Assembly: GCA_944327225.1 (NCBI GenBank)
Contig: CALVGZ010000012.1
Span: 1 to 60,632 of the forward strand
From: Candidatus Gastranaerophilales bacterium
GTDB lineage: Bacteria > Cyanobacteriota > Vampirovibrionia > Gastranaerophilales > Gastranaerophilaceae
Length of the DNA: 60,632 nucleotides
Reading direction: 5' to 3'
The position numbers were made by a program, and so were the translations under genes. Below the pieces are notes generated by a model, which did no database searches, was not told the origin of the DNA, and saw only the letters and a program-made list of their open reading frames with translations. This document shows, in pieces, positions 13,988 to 16,663 of the stretch. Numbering within the stretch: the stretch's first letter is position 1; each line of letters starts with the position of its first letter.

Positions 13988-14605
13988 TTAAAATTTAACC
14001 GCCCTAATAAAATCAGATACTATAACAGGATTATACGCCTTAACATCAACTACCGTAAAAATAAGTTTTGTTGAAGGATTTTTAGCTTTTTCGTTTTTTG
14101 TTTCATAAGCGGCAATTATACCAACAACATTCTTAAAAGGAACATTTTTAACCTTTGCACTAAATTTAACATAAGGGACTTTTTGACCCTTTGAAATATA
14201 TGACCCTTTTTGAGTAATTTTAAAATCCTCAAAAGTAATGAAAGAGTCCTTAGATTTATTCAACAAATCATAAATTTTATTGTTTACTTCGTTGGATAAA
14301 AAGTCAGCACAAGAAAGCTTTTTTGTATCTCTTAAATCAAATATTGTTATTTTTTGACCTGTTGGAATATATTTTGCATTAATCTTTTTGTAACCAAACA
14401 AATTATAACTCCGGCTAAGCTGGTAATCGCTTGAAACCGAAGAAAAATCACCATAATCTCTTTCAGTTTTTACAAATTCATCTCTTGAAGGATTTTGATA
14501 ATTATTTATCTGTTTTTTTACAAACGAATAACCGCCAAATGCAAAAAATGCAACAATCAATATTATAAATATGATCTTTTTAAACAAACTTTTTAAACAA
14601 CCCAT
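13988..14605 (-). CDS. Orphan single-pass membrane protein
   Basis: This 205-residue protein has an N-terminal membrane helix (about 9-27) and a soluble domain outside. The domain has no motif I recognise; it contains repeated short beta-like stretches (KFSAKVKNVPFKNVVGIIAAY) and one Cys. GAGGTTG precedes the ATG. It is the first gene of a minus-strand pair with the GT2 gene, pointing loosely to an envelope role. Divergent from thiG. Confidence 0.6.
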   Translation of the reverse strand: MGCLKSLFKKIIFIILIVAFFAFGGYSFVKKQINNYQNPSRDEFVKTERDYGDFSSVSSDYQLSRSYNLFGYKKINAKYIPTGQKITIFDLRDTKKLSCADFLSNEVNNKIYDLLNKSKDSFITFEDFKITQKGSYISKGQKVPYVKFSAKVKNVPFKNVVGIIAAYETKNEKAKNPSTKLIFTVVDVKAYNPVIVSDFIRAVKF

Positions 14606-14647: not shown

Positions 14648-14676
14648 TTGACAAAATTGTCAATTTAATTTATATT
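14648..14676 (+). promoter_or_regulatory. Strong promoter of thiG-thiH
   Basis: TTGACA (14648-14653), 17-nt spacer, TATATT (14671-14676). Transcription should begin near 14683, giving an ~80-nt leader before thiG. Confidence 0.75.
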
Positions 14677-14698
14677 ACACATAGATTTTGTTATTTAA

Positions 14699-14757
14699 GG
14701 CAAATGAAGGGGTGCACCACCTTGGGTACGAGCTGCTTTGTTTGCTTTTTTTATTGA
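14699..14757 (+). promoter_or_regulatory. Leader hairpin with U-tract before thiG (attenuator-like)
   Basis: GCAAATGAAG and CTTTGTTTGC can pair over 10 bp including two G-U pairs, enclosing a GC-richer 26-nt apical part with GGTGCACC. A run of seven T follows, then the GAGGT ribosome site. This looks like a terminator or switch. It contains GGGGTGC but lacks the CTGAGA and the 3' half of a TPP riboswitch, so it is not called one. Confidence 0.5.
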
Positions 14758-14764
14758 GGTAAAA

Positions 14765-15523
14765 ATGGAAGACAAATTTAAAATAGGAAAATACGAATTC
14801 AAATCAAGATTTATTTTAGGTTCAGGAAAATTTAATCTCGAATTAATCAAATCTGCAATCGAAAATGCTAATGCAGAAATAATTACAATGGCACTCAGAA
14901 GAATAAACACCGAAACCGATAATATTCTTAATTATATACCCAAAAACATAAAAATTTTACCAAACACATCAGGTGCAAGAAATTCCGACGAAGCATTAAG
15001 GATTGCCCTTATTGCAAGGGAGCTTTCAGGAGCTGATATGATTAAAATAGAAGTAATTAAAGATTCAAAATATCTGCTTCCTGATAACTATGAAACCACA
15101 AAAGCAGTCGAAAAATTGGCAAACAAAGGCTTTATTCCAATGCCCTATATGTATCCGGATTTAACATCAGCAAGAGATATGCAAAATGCAGGAGCTGCTT
15201 GCATAATGCCCCTTGGTGCACCCATTGGAACAAATAAAGGATTAGTCACAAAAGACTTCATTAAAATATTAATAGATGAAATTGATTTGCCGATTATAGT
15301 GGATGCAGGAATCGGAAAGCCAAGTCAAGCTGCAGAAGCAATGGAAATGGGAGCAACAGCCGTTATGGCAAATACAGCTATCGCAACATCCGGAGATATT
15401 CAAACTATGGCAAAAGCATTTAAATTAGCAATCGAAGCAGGCAGGTTGGCATATCTTTCAAAATTAGGCAAAATAAGTAATTTTGCACAAGCCTCAAGCC
15501 CGCTTACAGGATTTTTGAGGTAA
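14765..15523 (+). CDS. thiG: Thiazole synthase
   Basis: About 252 residues starting at ATG 14765 after TTGAGGT; an upstream in-frame TTG has no support. Features are FILGSGKF, MALRRIN, LPNTSGA, the Schiff-base lysine in DMIKIEVI (K94), and the phosphate-binding region GLVTKDFIK to VDAGIGKPSQAAEAMEMGATAVMANTAIA. It forms the thiazole phosphate of thiamine from deoxyxylulose phosphate, ThiS-thiocarboxylate and dehydroglycine. The dehydroglycine donor is made by ThiH, encoded next. thiS, thiF and thiC are not in the window. Confidence 0.93.
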   Translation: MEDKFKIGKYEFKSRFILGSGKFNLELIKSAIENANAEIITMALRRINTETDNILNYIPKNIKILPNTSGARNSDEALRIALIARELSGADMIKIEVIKDSKYLLPDNYETTKAVEKLANKGFIPMPYMYPDLTSARDMQNAGAACIMPLGAPIGTNKGLVTKDFIKILIDEIDLPIIVDAGIGKPSQAAEAMEMGATAVMANTAIATSGDIQTMAKAFKLAIEAGRLAYLSKLGKISNFAQASSPLTGFLR

Positions 15524-15526
15524 GGT

Positions 15527-16663
15527 ATGCAAGATAAATTTTTTCCCGATATGGAAATAATTAAAAGCGATATCGAAGATAAAATCTTAAATATCACAAA
15601 TAATACTGATTTTAGCAAGTTTAAAGAGGATGATGTTATATACGCACTTAAAAAAGACACTTGCACAATTGATGATTTTTGTGCGTTAATTTCACCCGTT
15701 GCAAAAAAATTTATAGAACAAATTGCTGCAAAAGCAAAATCAGAAAGAGAAAGATATTTTGGAAAAAATGTCTATTTTTTTACTCCGCTATATATTTCAA
15801 ATTACTGTGAAAATCACTGTGTTTATTGCGGATTTAACTGCAAAAATGAAATTAAAAGAGCAAAACTAAATCTTAATGAAATTGAAAATGAATTAATTGC
15901 AATTAAAGAAACCGGACTTGAAGAAATACTTATTCTAACCGGTGAATCAAGAAAAATGTCGGATATAAATTATATAGCACAGGCAGTTAAACTTGCAAAA
16001 AAATATTTCAAAAATATCGGTCTTGAAATATACCCACTAAACACAAATGAATACAATTTATTACATAAAAACGGAGCGGATTATATAACGGTTTTTCAAG
16101 AAACCTACAACAAAGAAACATATAAAGCTAACCACTTAAAAGGACACAAGAGTATATACTCATACAGAATCAATGCTCAAGAAAGAGCCTTAAAAGGCAA
16201 TATGCGAGGAGTTGGCTTTGGTGCACTTTTAGGCTTAGGTGACTATATAAAAGATACTCTTGCAACAGGACTACATATATATTTTCTCCAAAAAAAATAT
16301 CCAAAAGGAGAGTTTGCAATTTCCGTTCCAAGATTAAGACCAACGGTTGTGAATTCAAATATCCACCCCATGGATGTCGGAGAATTGGAACTTTTGCAAA
16401 TAATGTGTGCTTATAGAATTTTTCTTCCATACATAAATATGACAATCTCAACAAGAGAAAGAGCGGAATTTAGAGACAATGCCGTAAAAATAGCCGCTAC
16501 AAAAATTTCTGCTGGAGTTTCAACAGGAATTGGTGAACACGCACATAAAAAAGAAGGTGACAATCAGTTTGAAATAGCCGATCCAAGAAGCGTTAAAGAA
16601 ATTTATACTGCATTAAAAAATATCGGCATGCAACCTGTAATGAATGAATATGTTTGGGTATAA
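15527..16663 (+). CDS. thiH: 2-iminoacetate synthase
   Basis: This 378-residue radical SAM enzyme carries C94-x3-C98-x2-C101 and matches ThiH along its length (YISNYCENHCVYCGF, ILTGESRKM, YPLNTNEYNLL, VFQETYN, SVPRLRP, STRERAEFRDN, SAGVSTGIGEH). It cleaves tyrosine to dehydroglycine for ThiG. This is the anaerobic alternative to ThiO, which fits a gut anaerobe. It begins 4 nt after the thiG stop with GAGG in the overlap. It is followed by a stem-loop cluster. Confidence 0.93.
   Translation: MQDKFFPDMEIIKSDIEDKILNITNNTDFSKFKEDDVIYALKKDTCTIDDFCALISPVAKKFIEQIAAKAKSERERYFGKNVYFFTPLYISNYCENHCVYCGFNCKNEIKRAKLNLNEIENELIAIKETGLEEILILTGESRKMSDINYIAQAVKLAKKYFKNIGLEIYPLNTNEYNLLHKNGADYITVFQETYNKETYKANHLKGHKSIYSYRINAQERALKGNMRGVGFGALLGLGDYIKDTLATGLHIYFLQKKYPKGEFAISVPRLRPTVVNSNIHPMDVGELELLQIMCAYRIFLPYINMTISTRERAEFRDNAVKIAATKISAGVSTGIGEHAHKKEGDNQFEIADPRSVKEIYTALKNIGMQPVMNEYVWV

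What the first reader, a model, noticed from the sequence alone, without database searches (positions are those of the whole stretch)
14684..14764. Unassigned attenuator-like leader on thiG-thiH
The strong TTGACA-N17-TATATT promoter gives an ~80-nt leader with a 10-bp hairpin holding a compact GC-richer apex and followed by seven T, immediately before the ribosome site. Thiamine genes are often under TPP control, but the TPP aptamer is not recognisable. A small unknown riboswitch or protein-controlled terminator is possible.
Basis: partly seen in the sequence, partly recalled or inferred. Interest (0 to 1): 0.5.

Follow-up and report, generated by a model that had tools for sequence, protein, structure and literature searches.

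The report
HMP-PP riboswitch before thiamine-ring genes
The hairpin in front of these vitamin B1 genes belongs to a known class of very small RNA switches that turn on production of one half of the vitamin when the precursor of the other half is available, here in a gut bacterium outside the groups in which the class was described.

Summary
In detail: a strong promoter, a leader of about 82 nt, a 13-pair hairpin (14697-14748) running into seven T, and a ribosome site stand directly before thiG-thiH. The hairpin is not unassigned. Its apex also sits before thiS operons and thiW in Clostridia and in a thiF-thiG operon of Gardnerella: it is the "thiS motif", shown in 2019 (PMC6478431) to be a terminator-embedded riboswitch for the thiamine precursor HMP-PP. 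Rfam matched nothing over the motif in 58 loci that carry it, so its silence on the window means little. On 52 distinct sequences, 11 of 16 terminator pairs and 3 of 6 apex pairs change on both sides. In 10 of 20 loci of one Clostridial order a TPP riboswitch lies 60-120 nt upstream, the published tandem arrangement. In the window's genus, 11 of 12 ThiE-positive genomes carry the motif. Its ThiG is 71-73% identical to Clostridial ThiG but 41-46% to ThiG of other families of its order, so operon and switch probably crossed phyla together. Ligand binding is inferred from homology, not tested. New member of a known kind, in Ca. Melainabacteria.

The parts
14648..14676 (+). sigma-70 type promoter TTGACA-N17-TATATT
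   Evidence: 11 of 12 letters; TTGACA-N17-TAnnnT kept in 11 of 11 genus members that carry the motif. Transcription start not measured
14687..14704 (+). P1 (ON-state, anti-terminator) hairpin: 14687-14692 pairs with 14699-14704, 6 pairs; its 3' arm lies inside the terminator's 5' arm, so the two exclude each other
   Evidence: fold of the leader cut before the terminator's 3' arm; 5' and 3' arms pair better within than between sequences, p 0.005, not corrected for relatedness. Within the genus no two-sided change (alignment, read by eye)
14697..14709 (+). 5' arm of the intrinsic terminator
   Evidence: 11 of 16 stem pairs with two-sided change on 52 distinct sequences
14709..14712 (+). GGGG, proposed pseudoknot partner of the loop CC (14720-14721)
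   Evidence: GGGG-N3-ACCACC is present in 28 of 28 and 26 of 26 loci that the covariance model found; the role is from PMC6478431 (mutant G26C), inferred here
14713..14730 (+). P2 apex hairpin: 14713-14718 pairs with 14725-14730 (third pair C.A), loop ACCUUG 14719-14724
   Evidence: 3 of 6 pairs show two-sided changes: C-G/U-A, G-C/A-U, U-A/C-G
14736..14748 (+). 3' arm of the intrinsic terminator
14746..14752 (+). run of seven T (U tract)
   Evidence: runs of 5-7 T in 11 of 11 genus members
14756..14759 (+). ribosome-binding site GAGG of thiG
   Evidence: read from sequence
14765..15523 (+). thiG (thiazole synthase), regulated gene
   Evidence: PF05690, E 5.4e-98
15527..16663 (+). thiH (2-iminoacetate synthase), second gene of the operon
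   Evidence: TIGR02351, 497 bits, cut-off 380

Best explanation
The leader is an HMP-PP riboswitch (thiS-motif RNA) that controls thiG-thiH by transcription attenuation. Without ligand the 13-pair stem forms and RNA polymerase stops in the U tract before the ribosome site (OFF). When HMP-PP (product of ThiC and of the ThiD2 part of a ThiD2-ThiE fusion in this genome) is plentiful, it binds the small aptamer: GGGG and the CC of the P2 loop close a pseudoknot, the upstream P1 hairpin holds the terminator's 5' arm, the terminator does not form, and thiG-thiH are transcribed. The cell thus makes the thiazole half only when the pyrimidine half is waiting for it. Shown here: anatomy, conservation, covariation of terminator stem and P2, gene context, homology to Bacillota thiS and thiW leaders. 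Inferred from the published class: ligand, ON direction, pseudoknot, competition of P1 with the terminator.
For: Core in 11 of 28 genus genomes, before thiG. A scan of one genome each of 84,980 species gave 48 records: 10 Gastranaerophilales, 12 Bacillota and 4 Bifidobacteriaceae with a T run of 5 or more, and 22 scattered chance hits with no T run above 4. Downstream genes of model-found Bacillota loci: ThiS-like in 22 and ThiW-like in 4 of 28 (by eye; Pfam confirms ThiS of L116 and ThiW of L037), ThiS-like in 25 of 26 (by eye). Covariation on 52 distinct rows: 205 two-sided cells against 74.8 in shuffles and at most 47 when slid. TPP riboswitch 60-120 nt upstream in 10 of 20 loci. The class, its terminator-embedded aptamer, two-stem ON state with pseudoknot, thiS/thiW context and 20-30% tandem rate are in PMC6478431 and PMC6429828. 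Pathway genes in the same genome: ThiC, ThiS, ThiD2-ThiE. ThiE over its cut-off in 12 of 28 genus genomes, namely the 11 with the motif plus G009.
Against: No ligand or termination experiment. The published consensus figure is not held; equivalence rests on its text, gene context and homology. In the published example U46-U48 pair with G25-G27; at the matching offset the window has A, G, C, so the register is off by at least one and GGGG is paired less regularly here. P1 is weakly supported within the genus, and some Clostridial leaders (e.g. L039) leave no room for it between promoter and core. G009 has thiG without the motif (L011). The window has U at 14713 where the other 10 genus members have C.
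Confidence: 0.93

Rival explanations
1. Same architecture but a changed ligand: a variant of the class that senses another thiamine intermediate (HMP-P, HET-P or TPP).
For: The genus, part of the Clostridia and Gardnerella share a C.A third pair in P2 (26 of 52 distinct rows not paired there) where the others have U-A, C-G or U-G.
Against: GGGG and ACCACC are kept in both forms, and the C.A form also stands directly before thiS in Clostridia.
Confidence: 0.04
2. Plain intrinsic terminator or promoter-proximal attenuator without a ligand.
For: Strong hairpin and U tract; palindromic terminators of other genes also reach E below 1e-3 with model R1 (L095, L096, L098).
Against: It stands between promoter and ribosome site of thiG, and its apex and loop are kept across phyla while the stem letters change freely.
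Confidence: 0.02
3. Protein-controlled terminator: an RNA-binding antiterminator protein reads the apex.
For: A conserved apex could be a protein site.
Against: The published class responds to HMP-PP in vitro without such a protein (PMC6478431, read).
Confidence: 0.01

Closest known systems
HMP-PP riboswitch / thiS motif RNA (PMC6429828, PMC6478431)
   Same: Aptamer embedded in a terminator; conserved apex and loop; at least six U; thiazole-synthesis genes downstream; [quoted passage not shown]
   Different: In Ca. Gastranaerophilales (Ca. Melainabacteria) instead of Firmicutes or Actinobacteria; before thiG-thiH, with thiS elsewhere in the genome; no TPP riboswitch in the genome; C.A third pair in P2 (shared with some Clostridia)
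TPP riboswitch (RF00059)
   Same: Controls thiamine genes; often just upstream of the thiS motif in Bacillota
   Different: No match in the window or in the genome

Membership tests
HMP-PP riboswitch (thiS motif) | Strong terminator stem followed by six or more U | tested here: met
   13 pairs, 7 U
HMP-PP riboswitch (thiS motif) | Unusually conserved terminator loop and apex on a variable stem | tested here: met
   GGGG-N3-ACCACC in 28 of 28 and 26 of 26 model-found loci; stem and P2 covary. The invariance in alignment A2 is no evidence: those rows were picked by an exact pattern
HMP-PP riboswitch (thiS motif) | Homologous to the RNAs before thiS and thiW in Firmicutes and to those of Actinobacteria | tested here: met
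   one model finds all 56 loci given.
HMP-PP riboswitch (thiS motif) | Association with genes of HET-P synthesis or use | tested here: met
   thiG-thiH
HMP-PP riboswitch (thiS motif) | Alternative ON structure: distinct P1 stem plus P2 | tested here: inconclusive
   P2 supported. P1 present in the window, matched arms pair better than mismatched ones, p 0.005, but no two-sided change in the genus and no room for it in some Clostridia
HMP-PP riboswitch (thiS motif) | GGGG at 24-27 with G26 and C35 critical, loop 35-39, U46-U49 opposite 24-27 | tested here: inconclusive
   Spacing from GGGG to the loop CC is the same (14711 to 14720); U46-U48 not matched (A, G, C in the window). The published figure is not held
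HMP-PP riboswitch (thiS motif) | About 20-30% of the class in tandem behind a TPP riboswitch | tested here: met
   10 of 20 loci, 0 of 18, 0 of 20; not at the window. A property of the class, not of each member
HMP-PP riboswitch (thiS motif) | Binds HMP-PP and thereby prevents termination | not testable with these tools
   needs in vitro transcription or in-line probing
TPP riboswitch RF00059 | Covariance-model match | tested here: not met
   no match in window or genome

The most novel reading that the evidence does not exclude
The C.A-paired form shared by this genus, some Clostridia and Gardnerella is a separate variant of the class with a shifted ligand or a pH-dependent response (protonated C.A pair), which spread between phyla with the thiazole operon.
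Probability: 0.06. Interest if true: 0.6.

Novelty: new member of a known kind. Interest (0 to 1): 0.3.

Why it matters
It assigns an unannotated leader, adds a phylum to a rare riboswitch class that the Rfam copy used here did not detect anywhere, and gives a case in which switch and operon probably moved together between gut bacteria. Because no TPP riboswitch was found in this genome, HMP-PP sensing may be its only RNA control of thiamine synthesis.

Tried and rejected
Rfam at gathering score and at E<=10 on the leader gave nothing. The terminator scan missed the site. MAFFT with the two g33 sequences misplaced the 3' arm (A4), so I used model-fitted alignments (A6, A7), which lean towards the structure; A2 is a plain MAFFT alignment and shows the same for the terminator stem. 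In A2 the core is invariant by construction (rows picked by an exact pattern), so core conservation is judged only on model-found loci. P1 covariation inside the genus: no two-sided change. Model R1 in 286 genomes of the order: 14 hits, of which 9 genus members, 2 true ones before thiG (L094, L097) and 3 ordinary palindromic terminators without the ACCACC apex (L095, L096, L098); the sample or the stricter filters missed two genus members known (G016, G018). In 292 genomes of the phylum: 8 hits, all among the same genomes. ThiG of other families in the order (nine loci) shows no motif in the 170 nt before it (by eye). Rows dropped before the alignments: 22 of 48 scan records as chance hits (no T run above 4); of the 26 kept, L058 and L060 (near-copies of L037 and L043) and the 10 Gastranaerophilales records, which duplicate genus loci already in. 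A7 holds 29 loci (L105-L133) of the 37 hits; loci were not added to it. Rfam was run on 20 of the 29 loci L105-L133 and 20 of the 26 loci L139-L164.

Papers: PMC6478431 abstract and outline, passages, Results parts 1-3; PMC6429828, PMC9971707, PMC12452182 passages only; the rest search listings. That HMP-PP might be the answer came first from recall and was then checked in these papers. The searches for this class in Melainabacteria or Gastranaerophilales listed no paper reporting it; 66% of the published representatives are metagenomic, so unreported examples may be among them.

Full report
What is there. Between a strong promoter (14648-14676) and the thiG start (14765) lies a leader of about 82 nt. 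Its RNA folds as one hairpin, 14697-14709 with 14736-14748, with an apex hairpin 14713-14730, then U7 and GAGG. ThiG and ThiH follow. Folding energy alone is only moderately unusual (z -2.41), so the case rests on comparison.

Relatives in the genus. The window's genome lies in a genus of which 28 genomes were searched. The exact core GGGGNGCACCACC-N(2-14)-GGTACGA occurs once in 11 of 28, with no match to the reversed control pattern. All 11 keep the promoter and a run of 5-7 T. ThiE scores above its cut-off in 12 of 28 genomes: those 11 and G009, whose thiG stands without the element.

Outside the genus. A scan of one genome for each of 84,980 species returned 48 records. By T run and context I split them into 26 real (10 Gastranaerophilales, 12 Bacillota, 4 Bifidobacteriaceae) and 22 chance hits. 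Bacillota ones precede thiS-thiF-thiG(-thiH) or ThiW; in Gardnerella (read in L053) a cytosine/purine-type permease, an amidohydrolase, thiF and thiG follow. A covariance model (R1) matched in 14 of 286 genomes of the window's order: nine genus members, two real relatives in genus g33 before thiG (L094, L097) and three ordinary terminators. The second model (R2) matched in 37 of 249 genomes of one Clostridial order and 46 of 391 of its class. First downstream genes: ThiS-like 22, ThiW-like 4, ThiF-like 1, none found 1, of 28; ThiS-like 25 of 26. These are judgements by eye except L116 and L037 (Pfam). GGGG-N3-ACCACC is present in all 28 and all 26 of these model-found loci.

Structure test. 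On the plain MAFFT alignment A2 (25 sequences) 11 of 16 terminator pairs show two-sided changes; 83.4% of cells pair against 75.9% in shuffles and 30.5-54.5% when slid. On the model-fitted A7 (56 matches, 52 distinct) 86.9% pair against 72.2%; 205 two-sided cells against 74.8; P2 has two-sided changes in 3 of 6 pairs: C-G/U-A, G-C/A-U and U-A/C-G. The third P2 pair is unpaired in 26 of 52 rows, in the window as C.A. One measure is not beyond chance in A7: the number of pairs with a two-sided change is reached by 97 of 500 shuffles. P1 exists in the window but is supported only weakly.

Identity. PMC6478431 describes thiS-motif RNAs as terminators with an abnormally conserved loop, a second two-stem structure with a possible pseudoknot (G26, C35), exclusive association with HET-P genes, about 30% in tandem behind TPP riboswitches, and biochemical and genetic evidence that HMP-PP prevents termination. 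PMC6429828 gives the spread: Actinobacteria 7%, Firmicutes 27%, metagenomes 66%, about 20% in tandem. I find the same contexts and phyla, and TPP riboswitches 60-120 nt upstream in 10 of 20 loci of one Clostridial order, 0 of 18 and 0 of 20 in two other sets. Rfam 15 gave no match over the motif in any of these 58 loci. The published figure and supplements were not readable, and U46-U48 of the published example has no exact counterpart here, so the register remains to be confirmed.

Mechanism. By homology: OFF by default, ON with HMP-PP. The genome encodes ThiC, ThiS away from this operon and a ThiD2-ThiE fusion, and no TPP riboswitch was found in it. HMP-PP sensing would commit sulfur to the thiazole only when the pyrimidine is ready, as argued for the class in PMC9971707 (passage).

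Origin. The window's ThiG is 71-73% identical to ThiG of seven motif-bearing Clostridial loci and 70% to L097, but 41-46% to ThiG of nine genomes of other families in its order. In the tree, genus ThiG, L097 and the seven Clostridial ThiG form a group (SH-aLRT 98) among motif-bearing Bacillota, far from the other Gastranaerophilales (quick method, few taxa, rooted on those others). Transfer of operon plus switch is the simplest reading; its direction is not proved.

Verdict. An ordinary member of a known but rare riboswitch class, in a phylum not named in the passages and sections read of the two founding papers.

Noticed in passing
L053 170-4908 (Gardnerella; also L043, L060, L076): The motif stands before a cytosine/purine-type permease and an amidohydrolase, then thiF and thiG; permease and hydrolase may serve salvage of a thiamine precursor, a context not named in the passages read of the two papers.
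   Followed up: partly
L095, L096, L098 (about 1501-1552): Near-identical palindromic terminators with a fixed CGACGAG loop between GGG(G/C) and (G/C)CCC recur in other genera of the same family; they look like ordinary terminators.
   Followed up: no
L011 1501-2253 (G009): thiG of a genus member has a short leader without the riboswitch, although a TTGACA box and the gene are kept.
   Followed up: no
L044 1047-1510 (-): Three c-di-GMP-I riboswitch aptamers in a row in a Monoglobus MAG.
   Followed up: no
L137 1386-2411 (-): In the window's genome ThiD2 is fused to ThiE, so HMP-PP would be made and used by one protein.
   Followed up: partly
L082 1299-3220 (-): thiC lies directly behind a class II aldolase gene, with no TPP riboswitch in the genome.
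   Followed up: no
window 13988-14605 (-): Gene divergent from thiG, 205 aa, N-terminal hydrophobic segment, no Pfam or NCBIfam match.
   Followed up: no
window 14713: The window's copy has U where the other 10 genus members have C at the first P2 position, leaving a U-G pair.
   Followed up: yes
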